A DNA stretch of 64,000 nt from Mesorhizobium sp. NZP2077 (GTDB lineage Bacteria > Pseudomonadota > Alphaproteobacteria > Rhizobiales > Rhizobiaceae). The DNA lies in NCBI RefSeq assembly GCF_013170805.1, contig NZ_CP051293.1, forward strand, positions 2,114,001 through 2,178,000. The letters are read 5' to 3'. Shown piece after piece: positions 43,093 to 55,319 of this stretch (positions are counted from its first letter, which is position 1; the number at the start of each line of letters is the position of its first letter). Position numbers and translations under genes: made by a program. The notes under the pieces are model-generated. The model did no database searches. It had not been told where the DNA came from and was given only the letters and a program-made list of their open reading frames with translations.

Positions 43093-46000
43093 ATGCGCGA
43101 CGTCACTCCTTGTCGACCGCACCCAAGAACCTTGGGATGGGCGGGCACGACGGCGCTCGCGATGGGAGGCAGCAATCAAAGCCTCTTTCTGATAGCCGCC
43201 CTTTTTGTCGGCCAAGGGAATATTCCCGGTCAAGGAAGCGCAGCGGTCCCGTTGCTCGTTGTTGGTCTGCTTCTTAGTTGGGCTGCGGCGCCGGCGTGGA
43301 CCGAATTGGTTCTCATGTGGCCAAACCGCGTTGGCGGTATCTCTGCAGCGTGCGCGGAAGCTTTCCGGCCCTACAGTCCCGTCCTCTCTGCCTTGACAGG
43401 CACCTGCTACTGGTGGGGTTGGGTCCCAACGTGCGGACTGACCGCGGTTCTTTCAGCGTCCGCAATCCAGCAATGGTACCTGCCGGGCATCCCCGTGGAG
43501 GCGGTCGCCTGCGCGCTCATCGGGTTTTTTACGGCGGTCAACCTGTGTGGAATCAAGTGGGTGGTACGACTGGCGATGCCGATCGCTACATTCTCCGCGA
43601 TGCTTGCGTTTCTGTCATCCTTTATCCCGGTCATTAGCGGCGCGGTTGACTGGCGGCAGGCGACTGACTTTACACTGACAAGTCCGTTTGCCGGGCTGTT
43701 CGGCAACATCACGTCGGTAATGGCAGGACTATATCTGATCGGATTCGCCGCGCCGGCGTTTGAGGCCGCAGCTTGCCATGTTGGGGAAACCATCGACCCT
43801 AACCGCAATATTCCTCGCGCGATGTTGGCCAGCGCGGGAATGGCCGGCATCTATTTCTTCGTCCTGCCGGTTGTTTGGTTGGGTGTGCTTGGGCCAGGGC
43901 CGCTCGGCACGGACCTCGCGGTGGTCCTCGGCCCCACGTTTGCTCCCCTATTGGGCAGTTTTGGCAAAGCCGCTGCCATCTGGTTTATCATGTTGAACAT
44001 GTTTCATGGAACGTTGCAGCCCCTGGCAGGCGCCGCGCGGACCCTTGCGCAACTGAGCGAAGACGGCCTGCTGCCGAGGTTCCTGGCCAGCCGCACCGCA
44101 ACGGATTGTCCATGGGCGGCAACGCTGCTCACTGCTGGCGCAGCCATAGGTTTCATGCTGTGCGGATACCCGCTCTGGATGATTGCTGCGGCCAATTTTA
44201 CCTATCTGATTAGCATCTGCATGCCCAACATCGCAGTCTGGCTCTTGCGCCGAGACCATCCCGATGCCAAGCGACCCTTCCATGCTCCCAGGGGAACGAT
44301 CGTCCTTGGCTTAGGGGCGGCGGCAATATGGCTATTGACCGCCGTACTGGGATTCCAGCAGTTTGGCCTTCCTACTGTATTGTTCGGTCTGGCATTGGCA
44401 TATTCGGGCGCTGCGCTTTACGCGTGGCGCGCTATTGAGGATCGGCACGCACTGGGTCTACCCTTGCTGGCGCGCACGCTTCACCTGAAGCTCACCGGAG
44501 CCATGCTTTTTGTGCTCGTGCTTGACGGTGCCGGTTATTTCTTGGCAATCAGCAGCGTTTCCCACGTGCAGGCTCCACTGATCGCAGCGCTGGAGGACAT
44601 ATTTGTTGTCGTCGCGCTACTGACCATCAGCGTCGGCCTGGTTTTGCCGGGAATGATTACTCATTCGGCAAGCGAGGTGACCAATGCAGCGAAGCGTTTG
44701 ACATCCGGAACGTTAAAGGACTTCTCTCTCGCCATGGCTGCTCTGGGGCGAGGAGACCTCGACGCGGCGCACGCCTCGGTGAACATCTTACCGGTGAGGG
44801 TAAACTCTCGGGACGAACTCGGAGAGATGGCCGAAAGCTTCAACCTCCTGCAAGATGAAGTGAAAGAGGCCGCCCACGGCCTGGACGAGGCGCGCGAGAA
44901 TATGCACTTAGCGCGCACGGAACTGATGGCACGGCACCAGAAAATCGAGCATCTTGCACATCACGATACCCTCACCGGTCTGGCGAACCGCACCTCGCTG
45001 GCATCGCACCTGGCCAGGACGCTCGAGCAGGCAAGAGCATCGCACAGCAGCTTTGCCGTTCTCAGCATCGACCTTGACCATTTTAAAGAGGCCAACGACG
45101 TTTTTGGGCACGCGGCCGGCGACGATCTTCTGTGCGCCATCTCCCGGCGCCTTGAAGCTGCGGCGCCCGAAGCCTTTATCGCCCGCATGGGTGGCGACGA
45201 ATTCACACTTATCCTGTCCATGGATGAACAGCCCGCTGGAGCCCAGGAAGTCGCCGACCGTCTGTTCGAATCGGCGGCAGGCGAATTCGAAATCCGGCGC
45301 CAGCACATTTCCATCGGACTGAGCATCGGCGCGGCGATCTATCCGAGGGACGGCGAGAATGCGGCGGCGCTATTGGCAAATGCCGACGCCGCGCTCTACC
45401 GAGCCAAGGCGGACGGTCGTCGAATGCTGCAGTTCTTCGATCCTGAAATGGACAGGCGGCTAAGAGAACGTTACGCCTTGCAGCGAGATTTGCGTTCGGC
45501 AATCGCACATGGCGAACTTGTGCTCCACTATCAGCCGCAAGCTCGGATAGACGGCGAAATCTTTGGTTTTGAGGCACTCGCCCGGTGGCACCATCCAAGA
45601 CATGGACTCGTCTCGCCGACGGCGTTTGTCCCCCTTGCCGAACAGGATGGCACGATCGTTGAAATAGGTGAATGGACGCTCCGGCAGGCATGCAAGGAGG
45701 CCGCCTCCTGGGCCGTGCCCCTGCAAATCGCCGTCAATCTTTCCCCTGTGCAATTCCGTTTCGGGGACCTGGTGGGGCTCGTTCATTCGATCCTCTACGA
45801 GACCGGCCTTACGCCGGGACGCCTGGAATTGGAAATCACCGAAGGGGTTCTCATCCGTGATCGGGCAACCGCGTTGTCGGTTTTGCGGCGATTGAAGGCA
45901 TTGGGCGTCAGGATCTCCATGGATGATTTTGGAACCGGATATGCTTCCCTTTCCTCGCTACAGGCGTTTCCATTCGACAAGATCAAGATTGATCGCAGTT

Positions 46001-46293
46001 TCGTTTCCGGCGTCAACTCGAATGCCCAGTCCGCCGCCATCGTACGAACGATTCTCAGCCTGGGAAATGCGCTGACCTTGCCTGTCATCGCAGAGGGCGT
46101 TGAAACAGAAGACGAGCGTGTTTTCTTGATGACGGAAGGATGTCCCGAGATTCAGGGTTATCTCGTGGGGCACCCGCATCCAATAGCGCTCTATGAAGAA
46201 GTGACGAATGGCTTGGGTACCCGATCAAAATTCTCTGGTGAAAAACAGGATTCGGAAGTTGCTTTGCGCAAGCGAGCAAATGTTGCCAGCTAG
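43093..46293 (+). CDS. APC-type permease fused to HAMP-like, GGDEF and EAL domains
   Basis: 1,066 residues. Positions 1 to about 430 are an amino-acid/polyamine permease-like bundle of about 12 helices ('GWAGTTALAMGGSNQSLFLI' start). Two or three more helices and a HAMP-like linker ('NSRDELGEMAESFNLLQDEV') follow. The GGDEF domain has an intact 'RMGGDEF' near 698-703 and lacks the RxxD inhibitory site. The EAL domain has 'FEALARW' near 825, 'ELEITEGV', 'DDFGTGYAS', 'KIKID' and 'AEGVETE', so catalytic residues for c-di-GMP hydrolysis are present. The protein could couple solute binding or transport at the inner membrane to c-di-GMP turnover. Whether the permease part still transports is unknown. 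No partner genes adjoin. Confidence 0.88.
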   Translation: MRDVTPCRPHPRTLGWAGTTALAMGGSNQSLFLIAALFVGQGNIPGQGSAAVPLLVVGLLLSWAAAPAWTELVLMWPNRVGGISAACAEAFRPYSPVLSALTGTCYWWGWVPTCGLTAVLSASAIQQWYLPGIPVEAVACALIGFFTAVNLCGIKWVVRLAMPIATFSAMLAFLSSFIPVISGAVDWRQATDFTLTSPFAGLFGNITSVMAGLYLIGFAAPAFEAAACHVGETIDPNRNIPRAMLASAGMAGIYFFVLPVVWLGVLGPGPLGTDLAVVLGPTFAPLLGSFGKAAAIWFIMLNMFHGTLQPLAGAARTLAQLSEDGLLPRFLASRTATDCPWAATLLTAGAAIGFMLCGYPLWMIAAANFTYLISICMPNIAVWLLRRDHPDAKRPFHAPRGTIVLGLGAAAIWLLTAVLGFQQFGLPTVLFGLALAYSGAALYAWRAIEDRHALGLPLLARTLHLKLTGAMLFVLVLDGAGYFLAISSVSHVQAPLIAALEDIFVVVALLTISVGLVLPGMITHSASEVTNAAKRLTSGTLKDFSLAMAALGRGDLDAAHASVNILPVRVNSRDELGEMAESFNLLQDEVKEAAHGLDEARENMHLARTELMARHQKIEHLAHHDTLTGLANRTSLASHLARTLEQARASHSSFAVLSIDLDHFKEANDVFGHAAGDDLLCAISRRLEAAAPEAFIARMGGDEFTLILSMDEQPAGAQEVADRLFESAAGEFEIRRQHISIGLSIGAAIYPRDGENAAALLANADAALYRAKADGRRMLQFFDPEMDRRLRERYALQRDLRSAIAHGELVLHYQPQARIDGEIFGFEALARWHHPRHGLVSPTAFVPLAEQDGTIVEIGEWTLRQACKEAASWAVPLQIAVNLSPVQFRFGDLVGLVHSILYETGLTPGRLELEITEGVLIRDRATALSVLRRLKALGVRISMDDFGTGYASLSSLQAFPFDKIKIDRSFVSGVNSNAQSAAIVRTILSLGNALTLPVIAEGVETEDERVFLMTEGCPEIQGYLVGHPHPIALYEEVTNGLGTRSKFSGEKQDSEVALRKRANVAS

Positions 46294-46962: not shown

Positions 46963-47460
46963 TTATGCTGTAGCGGTCGTCCGACTGAACAGTTCACCTG
47001 ATTTCAGCATGGCATGCATGATGACCGCCAGCTTCCGGGCGACGGCGACAGCGGCCCGCTTGAACCCGAGTTTCTCACGAAGTTTGAGCCCCCAGGTTCG
47101 CAATTCACTTTCCTCATGAGTGCGCGTCAAGATCACGGTCGCGGCCTCATACAGAAGAGCTCGCAGATTGGCGTCACCACGTCTTGAGATATGTCCGTCA
47201 TAGTCGACCTCGCCAGATTGATATCGCCGCGTGGTCAAACCAATCCACGCACCCACGGATCGTGACTTGGCGAAGTTGGAGGGATCTTCAATCGCCGTGG
47301 TAAAGGTGGTTGCGGTCACGACGCCGATGCCGGGTATCGTCATCAAGAGCTGGCATGCTTGGCTCTCGCGCGCCGCAGACGTGAGTTGACGCCCCAGTTC
47401 AGCGGCTCTTGCTCGCATGGTGCGCCATGCCTCCAATATTGGAAGAATAATTCGTGCTAG
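46963..47460 (-). pseudogene. IS110-family transposase A, C-terminal part (split gene)
   Basis: This is the C-terminal portion of an IS110-family transposase with the Transposase_20 signatures 'LLMTIPGIGVVTATTFTTAI', 'SVGAWIGLTTRRYQSGEV' and 'RRGDANLRALLYEAATVIL'. Upstream the frame runs into the inserted palindrome at CTAG (47457-47460). The N-terminal part lies at 51668-52196. Joining the two through a single CTAG restores the frame ('DGEDA-LARIILPILEAW'). Confidence 0.9.
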
Positions 47461-47566
47461 TCCCTATGATTGCTGGGCCTGAGGGCGGCCCGTCATCCGA
47501 TATGCAACGGTACGAGGGTTAAGCCGGCTGGCCGGCGCAGAGCCTCATGCATAGGAGACGGGCCAT

Positions 47567-48681
47567 ATGGACCATATCAGATTTGTCGGTTTGGATATTC
47601 ACAAGGAACGGATCTCAGTCGCGGTGGCGGAGAGCGGACGCTCCGGCTCGGTGGAATATCTCGGCGAGATTGCCAATGATGCTGATACCATCAGCAAGCT
47701 GTGCGATCGTCTCAGGCGGTCCGGCAAGCCACTGGCGTTTTGTTATGAGGCCGGCCCGTGCGGCTATGGCGTTCATCGCTAACTCACGCGCCTCGGCCAT
47801 CGGTGCGACGTGGTGGCGCCATCGCTGATTCCGCGGAAGCCTGGCGATCGGGTGAAGACGAACCGTCGCGACGCCACCATGCTCGCCCGCCTTCATCGGG
47901 CCGGAGAGTTGACCCCAGTCTGGGTGCCGACGCCGATCATGAAGCCATGCGCGACCTGATCCGGTTGCGCAGCGTCGTGCGACAGGTGGTGACGCGAGCG
48001 CGCCAACATCTTCAAGGATTTCTGCTGCGTCACGGGCGCAAGCATGAGCGCGGGACGGCCTGGCGAAAGGCTTACCGGCGATGGCTTTCGACATTGGCCT
48101 TCGACCATCCCGCTCAGCAGATCGCATTTCAGGACTACGTCGATGCTGTCATGGATGCGGAACGGCGCCTGCAGCAGGTCGAGGAACAGATACTCAGCCT
48201 GCTCCCGGAATGGAACCAGCGCCCGGTCGTTGACGCCTTGCAGGCGATGCGCGGCATCGCGCTGATTAATGCCGTGGTGCTGGTCGCGGAGGTCGGTGAC
48301 TTCACACGCTTCTCAAACCCACGCCAGCTCATGGCCTATTTTGGCCTGGTCCCCGGAGAACAATCGAGTGGTGAGACCGTCTGGCGCGGCGGCATCACCA
48401 AGACCGGCAACACTCATGCCCGGCGCGCGCTGGTCGAAGGCGCCTGGGCTTACCGGATGAGAGCGCGCATCGGCCGGCACAAGGTCGACCGGATCGAGGC
48501 GCTGCCGAAAGTCGTTCGCGATATCGGGTGGAAAGCGCAAGTTCGACTGTGCACCCGATATCGTCGGCTGAGCGCGCGCGGCAAGAATGCGAACGTCGTC
48601 AATGTCGCCATCGCACGCGAGATGGTGGGCTTCATCTGGTCGATCGCCTGCACGGTTCAATCCGCGCCAAAGACGGCGTGA
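47567..48681 (+). pseudogene. IS110-family transposase B, left copy (inactivated)
   Basis: Same protein as the intact right copy, but with a nonsense codon after 72 codons (CAA to TAA at 47780-47782) and a 1-bp deletion near 47927 that shifts the frame. The rest, from '[20 protein letters not shown]' to 'WSIACTVQSAPKTA', is unchanged. The catalytic N-terminal DEDD part is cut off, so the copy is dead. Confidence 0.92.
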
Positions 48682-48683
48682 CC

Positions 48684-48973
48684 ACTATTTGACAGACAGC
48701 CAGCAGAGGAGACCACAACACAGGATCAGCCTCGGCGCGATATGCGGCGCTGGAGGCGGGACAATGCCGGGGAGCCCTCGTCTCCACTATGAGCCTCGAC
48801 GCTCGCCACCTAGACAGAGGCAGCCCCAAACGAAACCAGGTCATGCGGCCCGACCCGCGGATGAGAGATTGTTGACCGACGTTCAAGTCCCGCCTCTTGC
48901 ACCTCATATCCGCCGTACAAGTGCCTCGACCGCCGATCCGGATCGGCGGGCCGCAGCTTATGTCAAAGGCCAT
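48684..48973 (+). other. Non-coding end of IS110-family element B, left copy
   Basis: About 290 bp between the transposase stop and the IS630 terminal repeat contain no protein-like frame but several short inverted repeats (for example ccgatccggatcgg). IS110-family elements encode a bridge/seek guide RNA in a non-coding end; whether it is this end or the 106-bp 5' end cannot be decided here. The mirror copy is 50154-50443. Confidence 0.35.
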
Positions 48974-49000
48974 TGTCAGCAATCATGAGAGTGGATTGAT
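48974..49000. repeat. 27-bp inverted repeat at left side of IS630-family unit
   Basis: tgtcagcaatcatgagagtggattgat recurs in inverse orientation at 50127-50153, where it encodes the last residues and stop of the IS630 transposase. It is likely the IS630 terminal repeat, although its true outer edge is hidden by the surrounding palindrome. (Written motif exceeds the core; key bases are tgtcagc...ggattgat.). Confidence 0.6.
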
Positions 49001-49017
49001 CGAGACAAAAGAGTCCG

Positions 49018-50151
49018 ATGTTGGATTCCCATCTGTTTTCGCATGTGCGACGATCGGGCATGCGCACCGGTATTACATTTGACGTCACTGCCGCCGACAG
49101 GATCCAGCTCGAAGCCATCGTGGCAAAGCACGGTTCGCCGCAGAAGCATGCGTGGCGGGCGAAGATCATTCTGATGAGCGATGACGGCTTGGGAACCGTG
49201 ACCATTATGCAGGCTACCGGCAAATCGAAGACCTGCGTGTGGCGATGGCAGGAGCGTTTTATGGCCGAAGGCGTGGATGGCCTTTTGCGCGACAAGAGCC
49301 GCCCGCCAGGCATTGCGCCACTCGATCCCGAACTGGTCGATCAGGTGATCGCGCTGACGCTGGAAACGCCCAAGCAAGAGGCCACACACTGGACCGTTCG
49401 CGCGATGGCAAAGGCGGTGGGGATCGCGGCCTCTTCGGTCGTCAAGATATGGCACGAGCATGGTCTTGCACCGCACCGCTGGCGCAGCTTCAAACTGTCG
49501 AATGACAAGGCCTTTGCCGAGAAACTGCACGATGTCGTTGGGCTCTACGTCTCGCCGCCGGCCCATGCCATTGTTCTTTCCGTCGATGAAAAGAGCCAGA
49601 TCCAGGCGCTGGACCGCACCCAGCCAGGACTTCCGTTAAAGAAGGGGCGGGGTGGCACGATGACCCATGATTACAAGCGCCACGGAACCACCACCCTGTT
49701 TGCTGCCCTCAATGTTCTCGACGGCTCGGTGATCGGCCGCAACATGCAGCGACACCGGCATCAGGAGTTCATCCGTTTCCTCAACGTGATTGAGGCGCAA
49801 CTGCCGAAGGATAAGGCAGTCCACGTCATTCTCGACAACTACGCGACCCATAAGCAGCCGAAGGTCCGCGCCTGGCTGGCAAGACATCCGCGATGGACCT
49901 TCCACTTCGTTCCAACATCATGTTCATGGCTCAACGCTGTCGAGGGCTTCTTCGCCAAACTGACACGACGTAGACTGAAACACGGTGTCTTCCACTCCGT
50001 CGTCGATCTGCAGGCGGCAATCAACCGCTTCATGACTGAGCACAATCACGAACCCCGGCCATTCGTCTGGAAAGCAGACCCCGATGAGATCATTGCAGCC
50101 GTCAAACGCGGGCACCAAGCGTTGGAATCAATCCACTCTCATGATTGCTGA
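49018..50151 (+). CDS. IS630-family transposase
   Basis: 377 residues from ATG 49018 (ATG 49060 also possible). An N-terminal HTH region ('TVTIMQATGKSKTCVWRW', 'EGVDGLLRDKSRPPG') is followed by a second HTH-like segment and the DDE domain: D in 'VLSVDEKSQIQ', D in 'HVILDNYATHK' and E in 'SWLNAVEGFFAKLTRR'. This is the IS630/Tc1-mariner type, cut-and-paste into TA. The C-terminus ('ESIHSHDC') is encoded within the right terminal repeat. It appears intact and is the central unit of the palindrome. Confidence 0.92.
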   Translation: MLDSHLFSHVRRSGMRTGITFDVTAADRIQLEAIVAKHGSPQKHAWRAKIILMSDDGLGTVTIMQATGKSKTCVWRWQERFMAEGVDGLLRDKSRPPGIAPLDPELVDQVIALTLETPKQEATHWTVRAMAKAVGIAASSVVKIWHEHGLAPHRWRSFKLSNDKAFAEKLHDVVGLYVSPPAHAIVLSVDEKSQIQALDRTQPGLPLKKGRGGTMTHDYKRHGTTTLFAALNVLDGSVIGRNMQRHRHQEFIRFLNVIEAQLPKDKAVHVILDNYATHKQPKVRAWLARHPRWTFHFVPTSCSWLNAVEGFFAKLTRRRLKHGVFHSVVDLQAAINRFMTEHNHEPRPFVWKADPDEIIAAVKRGHQALESIHSHDC

Positions 50152-51667
50152 CAATGGCCTTTGACATAAGCTGCGGCCCGCCGATCCGGATCGGCGGTCG
50201 AGGCACTTGTACGGCGGATATGAGGTGCAAGAGGCGGGACTTGAACGTCGGTCAACAATCTCTCATCCGCGGGTCGGGCCGCATGACCTGGTTTCGTTTG
50301 GGGCTGCCTCTGTCTAGGTGGCGAGCGTCGAGGCTCATAGTGGAGACGAGGGCTCCCCGGCATTGTCCCGCCTCCAGCGCCGCATATCGCGCCGAGGCTG
50401 ATCCTGTGTTGTGGTCTCCTCTGCTGGCTGTCTGTCAAATAGTGGTCACGCCGTCTTTGGCGCGGATTGAACCGTGCAGGCGATCGACCAGATGAAGCCC
50501 ACCATCTCGCGTGCGATGGCGACATTGACGACGTTCGCATTCTTGCCGCGCGCGCTCAGCCGACGATATCGGGTGCACAGTCGAACTTGCGCTTTCCACC
50601 CGATATCGCGAACGACTTTCGGCAGCGCCTCGATCCGGTCGACCTTGTGCCGGCCGATGCGCGCTCTCATCCGGTAAGCCCAGGCGCCTTCGACCAGCGC
50701 GCGCCGGGCATGAGTGTTGCCGGTCTTGGTGATGCCGCCGCGCCAGACGGTCTCACCACTCGATTGTTCTCCGGGGACCAGGCCAAAATAGGCCATGAGC
50801 TGGCGTGGGTTTGAGAAGCGTGTGAAGTCACCGACCTCCGCGACCAGCACCACGGCATTAATCAGCGCGATGCCGCGCATCGCCTGCAAGGCGTCAACGA
50901 CCGGGCGCTGGTTCCATTCCGGGAGCAGGCTGAGTATCTGTTCCTCGACCTGCTGCAGGCGCCGTTCCGCATCCATGACAGCATCGACGTAGTCCTGAAA
51001 TGCGATCTGCTGAGCGGGATGGTCGAAGGCCAATGTCGAAAGCCATCGCCGGTAAGCCTTTCGCCAGGCCGTCCCGCGCTCATGCTTGCGCCCGTGACGC
51101 AGCAGAAATCCTTGAAGATGTTGGCGCGCTCGCGTCACCACCTGTCGCACGACGCTGCGCAACCGGATCAGGTCGCGCATGGCTTCATGATCGGCGTCGG
51201 GCACCCAGACTGGGGTCAACTCTCCGGCCCGATGAAGGCGGGCGAGCATGGTGGCGTCGCGACGGTTCGTCTTCACCCGATCGCCAGGCTTCCGCGGAAT
51301 CAGCGATGGCGCCACCACGTCGCACCGATGGCCGAGGCGCGTGAGTTGGCGATGAACGCCATAGCCGCACGGGCCGGCCTCATAACAAAACGCCAGTGGC
51401 TTGCCGGACCGCCTGAGACGATCGCACAGCTTGCTGATGGTATCAGCATCATTGGCAATCTCGCCGAGATATTCCACCGAGCCGGAGCGTCCGCTCTCCG
51501 CCACCGCGACTGAGATCCGTTCCTTGTGAATATCCAAACCGACAAATCTGATATGGTCCATATGGCCCGTCTCCTATGCATGAGGCTCTGCGCCGGCCAG
51601 CCGGCTTAACCCTCGTACCGTTGCATATCGGATGACGGGCCGCCCTCAGGCCCAGCAATCATAGGGA
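50127..51667 (-). repeat. Right arm of the palindrome
   Basis: Reverse complement of the left arm, 1,541 bp, with an intact transposase gene. It includes the 27-bp repeat at 50127-50153 and ends with 'aggga' against CTAG. Confidence 0.9.
50446..51561 (-). CDS. IS110-family transposase B, intact copy
   Basis: 371 residues. The N-terminal RuvC-like DEDD domain has D in 'FVGLDIHKERISVAV', E in 'FCYEAGPCGYG' and the DxxxL-type '[19 protein letters not shown]' segment. The C-terminal Transposase_20 domain has 'ALQAMRGIALINAVVLVAEV' and 'NPRQLMAYFGLVPGEQSSGE', with the catalytic Ser region. IS110 enzymes act with a structured guide RNA encoded in the element. It has 'ggagacgggccat' before ATG. This copy differs in family subgroup from the interrupted transposase A. 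Confidence 0.93.
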   Translation of the reverse strand: MDHIRFVGLDIHKERISVAVAESGRSGSVEYLGEIANDADTISKLCDRLRRSGKPLAFCYEAGPCGYGVHRQLTRLGHRCDVVAPSLIPRKPGDRVKTNRRDATMLARLHRAGELTPVWVPDADHEAMRDLIRLRSVVRQVVTRARQHLQGFLLRHGRKHERGTAWRKAYRRWLSTLAFDHPAQQIAFQDYVDAVMDAERRLQQVEEQILSLLPEWNQRPVVDALQAMRGIALINAVVLVAEVGDFTRFSNPRQLMAYFGLVPGEQSSGETVWRGGITKTGNTHARRALVEGAWAYRMRARIGRHKVDRIEALPKVVRDIGWKAQVRLCTRYRRLSARGKNANVVNVAIAREMVGFIWSIACTVQSAPKTA

Positions 51668-52196
51668 CTAGCGCGTCCTCGCCATCGAGTAGCCGATAGA
51701 TGTTTTTCTCAAAGGTGCTGCCTTGCCCACGGGGAACGACTAGCCCGAACGTTTTCAGGAGGCCGCGTATCTGATTTGAAAGATCGGTTGTGATGCGAAC
51801 GAGCTTTGTACGTCCAGCAACCAAAGTGCGTATCAGCATGCTGTCGTAACCCTTCACCCGCACTTCCCGATAGAAACCTACCTCAGCCAGATGCGCCAAG
51901 CCGTCGGCGTCGTTCGCGTCAGTTTTATTCGGCGCCATGTCCAGCGCCGCTTTGGCGTGACGGGCGTCGATACAGATCGCCGGCACTCCTTGCCGGATCA
52001 GTCCATGATAGAACCAGACTGACAGCGGGCCGGTTTCGAACACCACCCGTTCGACATCGGCCGCACGCTTGCGGATCAACTCCGCTAGCAGCGTAGGGTC
52101 TGACGGGCACTTGCCCCGCCACACCCGTTTGCCTGCGCGCCGTATGGAAACGGCAGTCTCTTTCAAAGATGCGTCAAGCCCGATAAACTCACCCAT
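51668..52196 (-). pseudogene. IS110-family transposase A, N-terminal part (split gene)
   Basis: It starts at ATG 52196 with 'ggaggga' upstream. The DEDD domain is visible: 'EFIGLDASLKETAVSI', 'RVVFETGPLSVWFYHGL' and 'NKTDANDADGLAHLAEVGFY', followed by 'TDLSNQIRGLLKTFGL'. After 'LLDGEDA' the frame meets CTAG and enters the palindrome. With the C-terminal part at 46963-47460 it would make a normal IS110 transposase of about 340 residues. Confidence 0.9.
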
Positions 52197-52811
52197 AATT
52201 GTTCTCCCTCCGATAATCGGGCCTGGCGCCAATCGTGAGCCCGTCTCTTCAATCATATCGGGGAGCAACCACCTGTCGCCCGCTATTCATCACGTATGCA
52301 GACGAAGCGAATCACTCCGCGATTACCCCATGTACGAAAGCCTCTCATGCAGGAACCCGCGGGCCACAGTTGGTGGCCATGAGGATTTTAGTTTGCGGCT
52401 GATGTCGGCGACGGCGTGACCGCCCCCGTTAGGCGACGCGGTGGACACGGACGGACCGCTCAGCGAAGCCCCCGCACAGCCTTGTAGCCAAGAACCATGC
52501 AAAATTTGCAGAACGACTCGGGCGGCAAAGTTAAAGGCAATGGCGAATCTTCCACGCCGAGTTTGACCAACGGCGCCCTGGACAATTTGCCATTGCCTTT
52601 CAGGTCGCGGATTGGCTGCTGGTGCCAAGACCAAGTCGAGGAGGCCGCTCGTGCAAGCTCTGGGAGCGCGCAGCGCTCGCACCTATAGTCCAGAAGCGTC
52701 CCGCCGATGTGATCGGCAAACCCGTCCGCGTCATGCGCATTGCACCGGCGAGGAAGCCGACGATGTTTTTGGGGACGTCAAGAAGCCTGGGCTCCCTTTT
52801 GTACATGCCAT
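52197..52811. other. Non-coding flank of IS110-A and unassigned DNA
   Basis: The first 100-220 bp are probably the 5' non-coding end of IS110-A. The rest, up to the antiporter stop, shows no recognisable gene. Short frames on the plus strand lack start signals. Confidence 0.4.
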
Positions 52812-55121
52812 TCACGCAGCATGCGCTTCCCTACTGTTCGCTGCGTGCTTTACGCGTTCGCTGGCCAGCAGCACGACCGGACAGTCCACGCCGGCAAGGA
52901 CCGCCATAGCGGTGTCGCCGAAGAACAGCTCATCGCCCGGCCGTTGCGTCACGCCCATCACCACCATCACTATACCCTTGGCCACTTCGCGGGCGATCGC
53001 TTCGTTGGGTGCGGCGCTGGTGCGGATCGCCGTCTCGACGGATACGCCATAGCGATCTGCGAGGTCGACGATGTCCTTGAGCACGGCCTCCTCGCGCCGA
53101 TGGGAAACGGATCCCGGGCGGCTGCCTTTGGTAGTCTGTGAAACATAGAGAACCTTGACGCGGGCCCGGTGCGGCCGCGCCAGCGCAAGCGCGAAATCGG
53201 CGGCGCGGCGCGAAACTTCCGTGCCGTTGACGGGAACCAGTATGGTGGTGCCGGCTTTCAGAACCGGCATCTTGCCGGTGGATCTTGTGCCGTTCAACAC
53301 CAGGCATAGCGGACCGTCGAAGCCGGCGGTCATGTCGTTCAATGCGTCGGTGAACGATCCCTTGTCGGTCAGCATGGTCGCCAAGCCGACCACCAGGAGG
53401 CCAAAACCCTTGCGGGCTTCCTCGGCGATTGTCTCGGCGGTTGCCCCGAGCTCGCTGCGGGCAGTCAAATGGACTTTATCGACCGGTGCGTCCTCCGCCT
53501 TGCTCACGGCCTTAGCGCTCTTTGCCGCTCCCTTCTTGACCTCCTTTACAGCCCGGTCTGGACCCTTGGCAGGGGGAAGCCTCGACAGTTCGCCGTCCTT
53601 GAGTTGGAGAAGCGTGGTCGGCATGCCGCTGCCGCCGCCGACCAAGCCCGCGAGGTAAGCAGTGAACTTGCCGTTAGGGCTGTCGTCGACCAGTACCAAC
53701 AACCGTTCCAGCTTGGGGACGAAGCCGCGCTCGTCGAGCAGCTCGCGATCGACACGCTGCCTCTCGGTGTCGTTGATTGGCAACCGGCCAAGCGCCCAGC
53801 GCAGCATCGGCGGCATGGCGAGCGTAGTGATGACGGCCATGGTGACAATCATCGTGAACAGGTTGTGAGAGAGGATGTTCATCGACAGGCCGATGCTGGC
53901 GACGATCACCTCTGTCGAGCCGCGCGCGTTCATGGCGCTGCCTACGGCGGTGGCTTCCTTCAACGACATGCCGGCCAGCCGGCCACCGAGGAAAGCGCCG
54001 CCGAACTTGCCGACGCTAGCGATCGCCACCAGCGCCAACGTCAGCAGCGCAAGCGTCGGATCAGTGAGCACGGTGAGGTCGGCGGACAGGCCGGCCATGC
54101 CGAAGAAGACCGGCATGAACAGTGCGGTGATGACGCCGCGCAACTGGCCTTCAATGTGATCGGACAGGATCGGCGATTCGCCGACCAGTATGCCGGCGAC
54201 GAAGGCGCCGAGCACGGTGTGGACACCGATCAGGTTGGTGATCAGGGCCATCACGCCCATGATGATGAGGATCACGGTGATGACGGCATATTCGCTGCGG
54301 AAAGAGTCGTTGCTCCAGCGGATCAGCGCGAAGACGAGGCGCCGGCCGATGGTGAAGGAGAACACCATGAACAGTGCCACCTCGGCCACAGTGGCGATGA
54401 GCGGCAGCATCTGCAGGCTGCCATTGGTGGCGATGCCGAAGGCGACGGCGATGATCAGCCAGCCGACCGTGTCCTCGATGATCGCCGAGGAGATGATGAC
54501 CTGGCCGAGATTGCGGCGCATGAAGTTCATCTCGCGAACCACCATGGCGACGATCTTGACCGACGAGATCGACAATGCCGTGCCGAGGAACAGGCCGGCA
54601 ACGAGGCGCTGCTTGGGATCGGGCAACAGAGAGTCCGGCAGCAATTGCGCCAGCGCGAAGCCGCAGGCGAAGGGCACGACGACGCCGGTGATAGAGATCG
54701 AAAAACAAGCCGCACCTACCCGGCGCACGAGGCGCAGGTCGGTCTCCATACCGGTCAAGAGAAGAAGCAACAGGATGCCGAGCTGCGAGACTGCGTCGAG
54801 CATGCTCCTGTGCGCCGGCTCGGTCGAGAAGATCAGCTGCTGCGCCTCGGGCCACAGCCAGCCGAAGAGGGAAGGACCAAGCAGGATGCCGCCGATCAAC
54901 TGACCCATGATTGCCGGCTGGCCGTAGCGCTGAAAGATTTCGCCGAGCCCCCGGCCGACCAAAAGCAAGAGGACAATTTCTGCAACGAAGGTGCCTTCCG
55001 CAGAGCCACCCATGCCCGACGGCTCGGCACCCGCCGCCCAACTCATGCTGTTCGGAAGAAGAAAAAGCATCATCAATGGCAGCACCTTCGTAGCCGAACG
55101 TGTCGCCGCCTGACAATTCAT
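52812..55121 (-). CDS. CPA2-family cation:proton antiporter with USP-like C-terminal domain
   Basis: About 769 residues from ATG 55121. A possible signal or first helix is followed by the Na+/H+ exchanger domain of about 12 helices, with the CPA2 hallmarks 'GYVILGE'-equivalent 'GQLIGGILLGPSLFG', 'LLLLTGMETDLRLVRRVG', 'SSAIIEDTVGWLIIAV', 'GAFVAGILVGES' and 'AMNARGSTEVIVASIGL'. After residue 470 comes a cytosolic region with an Ala/Lys-rich linker and a universal-stress-protein-like domain ('TTILVPVNGTEVSRRAADFAL', 'MGVTQRPGDELFFGDTAMAVL'). It likely exchanges K+ or Na+ for H+ and is controlled through the USP domain by nucleotide binding. Confidence 0.87.
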   Translation of the reverse strand: MNCQAATRSATKVLPLMMLFLLPNSMSWAAGAEPSGMGGSAEGTFVAEIVLLLLVGRGLGEIFQRYGQPAIMGQLIGGILLGPSLFGWLWPEAQQLIFSTEPAHRSMLDAVSQLGILLLLLLTGMETDLRLVRRVGAACFSISITGVVVPFACGFALAQLLPDSLLPDPKQRLVAGLFLGTALSISSVKIVAMVVREMNFMRRNLGQVIISSAIIEDTVGWLIIAVAFGIATNGSLQMLPLIATVAEVALFMVFSFTIGRRLVFALIRWSNDSFRSEYAVITVILIIMGVMALITNLIGVHTVLGAFVAGILVGESPILSDHIEGQLRGVITALFMPVFFGMAGLSADLTVLTDPTLALLTLALVAIASVGKFGGAFLGGRLAGMSLKEATAVGSAMNARGSTEVIVASIGLSMNILSHNLFTMIVTMAVITTLAMPPMLRWALGRLPINDTERQRVDRELLDERGFVPKLERLLVLVDDSPNGKFTAYLAGLVGGGSGMPTTLLQLKDGELSRLPPAKGPDRAVKEVKKGAAKSAKAVSKAEDAPVDKVHLTARSELGATAETIAEEARKGFGLLVVGLATMLTDKGSFTDALNDMTAGFDGPLCLVLNGTRSTGKMPVLKAGTTILVPVNGTEVSRRAADFALALARPHRARVKVLYVSQTTKGSRPGSVSHRREEAVLKDIVDLADRYGVSVETAIRTSAAPNEAIAREVAKGIVMVVMGVTQRPGDELFFGDTAMAVLAGVDCPVVLLASERVKHAANSREAHAA

Positions 55122-55319
55122 GAAGCCCCGCAGTGGAATGCGCCTACGCCAACAACGCATGATAGGGATTTGCGTTGCCACTGTGATCCGTGCGCGTCTC
55201 CGATGGAGAACTATGGTTGCCGCCGATAGCTTCTATGACCAGTCTCCGAAGTGGCTGTTCGCGGAACCACGCCACGTTATGTCACTCGACTGCTCCATAG
55301 CCTGCTATTATCGCATCAG

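What the first reader, a model, noticed from the sequence alone, without database searches (positions are those of the whole stretch)
47461..51667. 4.2-kb near-perfect palindrome: two inverted IS110-family elements around an IS630 unit
Arms of 1,540 and 1,541 bp are inverted copies with only two differences, and the centre is an intact IS630-family transposase gene. Inverted composite elements made from IS110 members are unusual, because these elements normally have no terminal inverted repeats. Here the pair creates long ones, with CTAG on both sides. The structure could move as a unit, extrude as a cruciform or drive inversions.
Basis: partly seen in the sequence, partly recalled or inferred. 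Interest (0 to 1): 0.75.

Follow-up and report, generated by a model that had tools for sequence, protein, structure and literature searches.

The report
RNA-guided jumping gene caps another
The giant palindrome is one jumping gene (an IS630 element) that has had the same, probably RNA-guided, jumping gene (an IS1111-type IS110 element) inserted at both of its matching ends, so it shows one mobile element parasitising another rather than a new kind of composite transposon.

Summary
The palindrome is real, but it is not a composite transposon shown to move as a unit. An IS630 (IS870/ISAr1-like) element first inserted at a CTAG inside another IS110 gene. An IS1111-type IS110 element (IS110-B, 1,532 bp) then inserted at both IS630 tips, at CT^AGTGGATT. 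The tips are inverted, so the two copies face each other. This Mesorhizobium genome has six IS110-B copies; five occupy five of the six tips of its three IS630 copies, including a second complete B-IS630-B. Only two bare CTAGTGGATT remain in 7.69 Mb, one being the free sixth tip. The IS110-B 3' noncoding region holds a conserved RNA-like structure whose internal loop carries TCCACTA and CTAG, matching the two target strands in the order reported for IS1111 seekRNAs. Several relatives carry different guides and sit at other IS ends: another IS630 (AGTGTCC), IS5-family elements (A[AG]CAGG) and ISAzba7 (AACAGAAC). Paracoccus yeei has IS5 elements capped at both ends. The precedent is IS4321/IS5075 in Tn21-family inverted repeats (Tn6404 has both capped). 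I file it as a new member of a known kind. No RNA or movement was measured; immobilisation of the capped IS630 is inferred.

The parts
47459..48989 (+). IS110-B, left copy (IS1111-type, 1531 bp): extension AGTCCCT, sTIR, transposase gene broken by a stop (47780) and a 1-base loss, 3' noncoding region, right extension GAG
50138..51669 (-). IS110-B, right copy (1532 bp), intact
50446..51561 (-). IS110-B transposase, 371 aa (DEDD_Tnp_IS110 + Transposase_20)
47466..47475 (+). left subterminal inverted repeat ATGATTGCTG, left copy
48977..48986 (+). right subterminal inverted repeat CAGCAATCAT, left copy, followed by GAG
51653..51662 (-). left subterminal inverted repeat, right copy
50141..50150 (-). 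right subterminal inverted repeat, right copy
48990..50137 (+). IS630 element (IS870/ISAr1-like) between its two capped tips; tips AGTGGATTGAT at both ends, inverted
49018..50151 (+). IS630 transposase, 377 aa; its last codons run into the IS110-B end (..SIHSHDC) instead of stopping at CAC-TAG as in the bare copy L121
47457..47460 (.). CTAG, left outer flank; TA 47458-47459 is one copy of the IS630 target
51668..51671 (.). CTAG, right outer flank; TA 51669-51670 is the other copy
48769..48827 (+). predicted seekRNA/bridge RNA target-loop core, left copy
48783..48789 (+). guide TCCACTA, complement of target top strand TAGTGGA
48810..48813 (+). guide CTAG, complement of target bottom strand
50300..50358 (-). 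predicted seekRNA core, right copy
46963..47436 (-). C-terminal piece of the interrupted IS110-A transposase gene
51606..52268 (-). N-terminal piece of the interrupted IS110-A transposase gene (the ORF runs into IS110-B below 51670)

Best explanation
Step 1 (shown from the sequence): an IS630 element inserted into a CTAG inside the IS110-A gene, leaving TA on both sides; each IS630 tip next to host CTAG makes the site CTAGTGGATT. Step 2 (shown as outcome, mechanism inferred): IS110-B, an IS1111-type element whose 3' noncoding region encodes a predicted guide RNA reading CTAG and TAGTGGA, inserted at CT^AGTGGATT at one tip and again at the other. The tips are inverted, so the two copies face each other and form the palindrome. 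The same happened at a second IS630, and at one tip of the third. Step 3 (inferred): IS110-B circularises, which makes a -35/-10 pair with 17-nt spacing at its end-to-end junction, and the circle is inserted by the DEDD transposase. Step 4 (inferred, untested): the IS630 tips are now cut off from their TA, so the capped IS630 can no longer move. Related elements appear to have re-aimed their guides at other IS630 and IS5 ends.
For: Six IS110-B copies in the genome, 5 of 6 at IS630 tips. Only two bare CTAGTGGATT in 7.69 Mb, one being the free IS630 tip. Empty site restores an IS110-A frame with one TA. IS1111 anatomy: 10-bp sTIR, 7-bp left and 3-bp right extensions, long 3' noncoding region (rule from PMC11187229). 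TCCACTA followed by CTAG within 60 nt occurs in 21 of 20,000 shuffles of the noncoding region, in the top-then-bottom order reported for IS1111, on the two sides of an internal loop. Guides track targets: right-hand match 5.76 of 7 against 3.91 when shuffled, P 5e-5, and P 0.007 when shuffled within groups (20 pairs, not fully independent). Close relatives outside this genome: 8 of 10 site groups at IS630-family ends. More distant relatives with the guide pattern: 9 of 10 loci at IS5-family ends. Junction promoter-like pair with 17-nt spacing in 9 of 9 distinct junctions.
Against: No RNA or transposition was measured. The energy of the fold is unremarkable (z -0.94); covariation is one pair only, and 32 of 500 column shuffles reach the observed pairing. 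The left guide match is weak (P 0.02, and 0.15 within groups). Of 11 visible left ends of close relatives outside this genome, 5 follow CTAG (L083, L091, L092, L145, L146) and 6 do not (L084-L086, L088, L090, L093). One of six own copies (L009), plus L081, L125 and L139, lie at sites not shown to be IS ends. L081's guide fits its flank poorly (4 of 7). Immobilisation of IS630 is untested.
Confidence: 0.9

Rival explanations
1. The 4.2-kb block is a composite transposon that jumped as a unit to the second site (L007).
For: Two complete B-IS630-B blocks exist at unrelated sites.
Against: Both blocks have TA of CTAG on each side as an IS630 insertion would leave (an intact reading frame was restored for the window site only); the third IS630 has one cap and one bare tip; the blocks share no derived substitution; IS630 tips are no longer next to TA; IS5 elements in another bacterium are capped in the same way.
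Confidence: 0.04
2. One IS110-B inserted at one tip by its guide; the second arm was copied onto the other tip by gene conversion or palindrome repair.
For: Arms are near identical.
Against: All six genomic copies are near identical, so identity is not special to arm pairs; the left arm has two private changes; L008 shows a single-cap state; the guide predicts insertion at either tip.
Confidence: 0.05
3. The palindrome is an assembly artefact.
For: No reads could be inspected; long inverted repeats are a known source of misassembly.
Against: Distinct outer flanks for every copy, private mutations in the left arm, the restored empty site with one TA, and a second such block.
Confidence: 0.02

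Closest known systems
[quoted passage not shown]
   Same: IS1111-type element with subterminal repeats whose target is the terminal inverted repeat of another transposon; both repeats can be occupied (Tn6404, PMC5725488, passages seen); an off-site insertion occurs by resemblance to the repeat (ureC, PMC8269217, passages seen).
   Different: There the target lies inside a 38-bp repeat (16 + 22 bp in Tn6404). Here it is the outermost tip of a 1.1-kb IS630 plus the host CTAG it landed in; relatives use ends of IS5-family elements.
IS1111 seekRNA elements ISEc11, ISKpn4, ISPa11 (PMC11187229)
   Same: Guide RNA in the 3' noncoding region, top-strand match before bottom-strand match, 7/3-bp extensions, natural reprogramming between relatives.
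   Different: Targets there are a short linear site, attC sites and REP sequences; the word IS630 does not occur in the main text.
IS870 / ISAr1 (IS630 family) of Agrobacterium/Rhizobium
   Same: The capped element is 82-83% identical to copies so annotated; CTAG target; transposase stop made with the target TAG in the bare copy L121 (that IS870 itself does this is recalled).
   Different: Here both tips are occupied and the transposase gains four residues from the IS110-B end.

Membership tests
IS1111 family | DEDD transposase of the IS110/IS1111 type | tested here: met
   Pfam PF01548 and PF02371, NCBIfam NF033542 273 bits
IS1111 family | subterminal inverted repeats (usually 11-13 bp; 7-17 bp) with 7-bp left and 3-bp right extensions | tested here: met
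   10-bp perfect repeat; AGTCCCT and GAG
IS1111 family | long noncoding region downstream of the transposase | tested here: met
   308 bp downstream against 108 bp upstream (51562-51669)
IS1111 family | guide RNA with top-strand match before bottom-strand match | tested here: met
   by sequence only; the RNA itself was not observed
IS1111 family | promoter formed at the circle junction | tested here: met
   by sequence only: TTGTCA-17-TATGAT across the joined ends, 10 of 12; 8 of 5000 shuffles reach 10; 9 of 9 distinct junctions score 9-10 of 12 with 17-nt spacing (no null was run for 9 of 12); activity not tested
IS1111 family | circular intermediate | not testable with these tools
   needs PCR
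IS630 family | DDE transposase and TA target | tested here: met
   NF033545 259 bits; TA on both sides, empty site restored; bare tips of relatives at CTAG 9 of 10 left and 19 of 23 right (a further left tip, L108, not at CTAG, was left out of that count)
Inverted-repeat-targeting IS1111 elements (IS4321/IS5075 type) | inserts in the terminal repeats of another transposable element, in one orientation | tested here: met
   5 of 6 own copies; 8 of 10 close site groups; 9 of 10 distant loci with the guide pattern
Composite transposon | block moves as a unit with its own target duplication | tested here: not met
   the TA copies fit the IS630; no shared derived changes between the two blocks; movement itself could not be tested

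The most novel reading that the evidence does not exclude
IS110-B belongs to a clade of RNA-guided IS1111 elements in alphaproteobacteria that live on the ends of other insertion sequences. By small changes in two guide segments they moved between two kinds of IS630 tip, IS5-family tips and ISAzba7, and by capping both ends they cage the host element and turn it into a long palindrome: natural reprogramming that works in effect as transposon control.
Probability: 0.45. Interest if true: 0.65.

Novelty: new member of a known kind. Interest (0 to 1): 0.45.

Why it matters
It gives a simple rule for where such palindromes come from: a guided element that reads a terminal inverted repeat will produce inverted pairs. 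The relatives form a natural series in which guide and target change together across four kinds of IS end. That makes re-aiming of seekRNAs, and the question of whether tip-capping disables the host element, directly testable. It also warns that inverted IS110 pairs should not be called composite transposons by default.

Tried and rejected
Composite transposon moving as a unit: rejected. Rfam search of 47400-51800 gave 0 matches. No sigma-70-like promoter in the linear block; the junction pair only appears when the ends are joined. Covariation support for the RNA is weak. The first sTIR scan of the loci did not turn minus-strand loci round; repeated.

Inverted-repeat test of the right flanks: the best inverted match exceeded all 60 shuffled tips only for L134, L136, L141 and L162. 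It is insensitive: the known IS630 tips of this genome reached 13 of 20 against a shuffled maximum of 14, and L160 equalled its maximum (14). L160 and L161 rest on tip sequence and, for L160, on the two caps seen. L137 rests on tip sequence and its IS5 gene; L126 and L145 on similarity to the IS630 end. L135 and L167 were resolved as ISAzba7, where the insertion lies about 8 bases inside the element's end, not at the outermost base; L146 as another IS630. L009, L125, L139 and L081 stay unresolved; L081's flank shares AGTGTCCTGA with the second IS630 kind.

Rows dropped before counting. One search found 387 plasmid records and listed 40; I fetched 20 hits plus one re-fetch (21 loci: L122, L123, L134-L143, L160-L168). 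The guide pattern was not found in 9 of these (L122, L140, L142, L143, L163-L166, L168), which were not scored; L138 and L160 are one region. Of 11 non-own loci, L147-L151, L153, L155, L157 and L159 (53-57% identical) were not scored or tested for IS ends. Of the 20 stretches, L083, L087 and L090-L093 show no right end and L094-L098 (about 65% identical) gave no guide pattern; none was scored for right-end targets. Of 8 matches, L128 and L131 are not relatives; L129 and L130 repeat L089 and L084. L089 keeps TCCACTA but its second guide is lost, and L124 starts 20 bases before the matched right end, so its noncoding region is missing. One search used 11 guide types and 20 pairs; L161, L162, L082, L088 and L089 were left out of it.

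Papers: PMC11187229 (outline, sections 4 and 13, passages), PMC11208160 (section 12 and passages), PMC8269217 and PMC5725488 (passages only). Partridge and Hall 2003 was not held and is known here only from reference lists and passages. No report of IS1111-type elements at IS630 or IS5 ends was seen in the listings of the ten searches, which cover open-licence papers only; most listed papers were not opened.
Full report
The observation. The palindrome at 47461-51667 is real. One search finds inverted arms in two gapless blocks, each given as 100% complementary (rounded), and the alignment of all copies shows one substitution and one single-base loss between the arms. The right arm encodes an intact 371-aa IS110-family transposase; the left copy is broken by a stop at 47780 and by the base loss. 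The centre is an IS630 transposase gene. The block interrupts another IS110 gene, called IS110-A here, whose pieces flank it.

The genome. The window lies in a 7.69-Mb, two-contig genome. IS110-B has six copies and the IS630 has three. Two IS630 copies carry IS110-B at both ends (the window, and C1:4222572-4226779). One carries it at the right end only (C1:4636646-4638186). One IS110-B stands alone (C1:4333545). So five of six IS630 tips are occupied, and five of six IS110-B copies are at IS630 tips.

The target. The one bare tip reads CTAGTGGATTGATCGAG. All six own IS110-B copies are flanked by ..CT on the left and AGTGGATT on the right once the ends are placed by the IS1111 rule: 7 bases outside the left and 3 outside the right subterminal repeat (rule from PMC11187229). 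The insertion is therefore CT^AGTGGATT, without duplication. Only two uninterrupted CTAGTGGATT exist in the genome: the bare IS630 tip and one unrelated site. Other Mesorhizobium IS630 relatives show bare tips next to CTAG in 9 of 10 left and 19 of 23 right cases; one more left tip, L108, is not at CTAG. So CTAG is the usual IS630 target. Removing the block from IS110-A and keeping one TA restores an open frame. In the bare copy L121 the IS630 transposase stops at CAC-TAG, made with the target TAG; capping adds four residues.

The guide. The 308-bp noncoding region after the transposase contains TCCACTA, complementary to TAGTGGA of the target top strand, then CTAG 27 bases further on. This is the order reported for IS1111 seekRNAs. 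Among 20,000 dinucleotide shuffles of this region, 220 had TCCACTA and 21 had it followed by CTAG within 60 nt. The predicted fold puts CCACUA and CCACCU on the two sides of one internal loop. The surrounding stems are conserved across 12 sequences (96.6% of cells paired against 26.5-48.3% when slid). However, covariation is limited to one pair, 32 of 500 column shuffles do as well, and the fold energy is ordinary (z -0.94). The two ends joined make TTGTCA-17-TATGAT, and nine of nine distinct junctions have such a pair, 9-10 of 12 matches, with the same spacing.

Close relatives. Outside this genome, and with the right end visible, there are ten site groups. Eight are at IS630-family ends: L082, L084/L085/L086/L127 counted as one, L088, L089, L124, L126, L145 and L146. 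Two are not shown to be: L081 and L125. L146 is at the end of a different IS630 beginning AGTGTCC. A bare copy of that element in Methylocystis iwaonis shows CTAGTGTCCTGACTC, and the guide in L146 reads ACACTA where IS110-B has TCCACTA. Left ends are less regular: 5 of 11 visible ones follow CTAG.

Distant relatives. Elements with 65% and 62% identical transposases (L134, L162) have guides of the CTGTTA type. Of the ten loci with that guide pattern, nine lie at IS5-family ends (L134-L137, L138/L160, L141, L161, L162, L167) and one, L139, is not shown to. The inverted partner of the tip beats all shuffles for L134, L136, L141 and L162, and the genes next to L134, L137, L138, L141 and L162 score as IS5 family. 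L135 and L167 are inside the end of ISAzba7, about 8 bases in. L160 and L162, both Paracoccus yeei, are IS5 elements capped at both ends by inverted IS110 copies: the same architecture as in the window, made with another IS family. These ten come from 20 hits fetched out of 387 plasmid records found.

Guide against target. Right side 5.76 of 7, shuffled mean 3.91, P 5e-5, and 0.007 when shuffled only within the IS630 or IS5 group. Left side 3.12 of 5 against 2.54, P 0.02, and 0.15 within groups. The pairs are not fully independent, and one (L081) fits poorly.

Reading. The palindrome is best explained by two guided insertions into two inverted tips. That the copies sit at tips, the order of events at the window site and the target rule are shown by sequence. 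That an RNA guides them is supported by sequence and by knowledge of the family. That capping immobilises IS630 is inference: the GTGGATT tip is now preceded by GA instead of the TA.

Known context. [quoted passage not shown] In Tn6404 both repeats are interrupted by IS5075 (PMC5725488, passages), and IS5075 hits ureC because it resembles the target (PMC8269217, passages), which parallels the solo copy L009. The kind is therefore known; the host elements (IS630, IS5) and the natural series of guides are what is added. Novelty is limited by the open-licence literature searched.

Noticed in passing
L008 4133-4519 and 7347-7916 (genome C1 about 4635.1-4638.9 kb): An ORF upstream of the half-capped IS630 ends in it, and the first ORF downstream matches Pfam AIPR (PF10592), a family linked to abortive infection (recalled), so the IS630 probably interrupts that gene; the upstream ORF itself had no Pfam match. 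An IS701 element follows.
   Followed up: partly
L084, L085, L086, L127: Deleted IS110-B relatives (L084-L086 lack most of the guide region) sit at an IS630 right-end relic with nearly identical flanks in several Mesorhizobium genomes; probably one old insertion.
   Followed up: partly
G293 (L153, L155, L157): Another IS1111-type element, 57% identical, with three copies; its target was not worked out.
   Followed up: no
window 43093-46293: A 1066-aa protein joins an amino-acid permease domain to HAMP, GGDEF and EAL domains.
   Followed up: no
window 52812-55181 (-): Sodium/hydrogen exchanger fused to a universal stress protein domain.
   Followed up: no
L161: In Paracoccus yeei plasmid unnamed1 an annotated IS5 transposase gene lies just after the transposase gene of an IS110-B relative, before its right end.
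   Followed up: no
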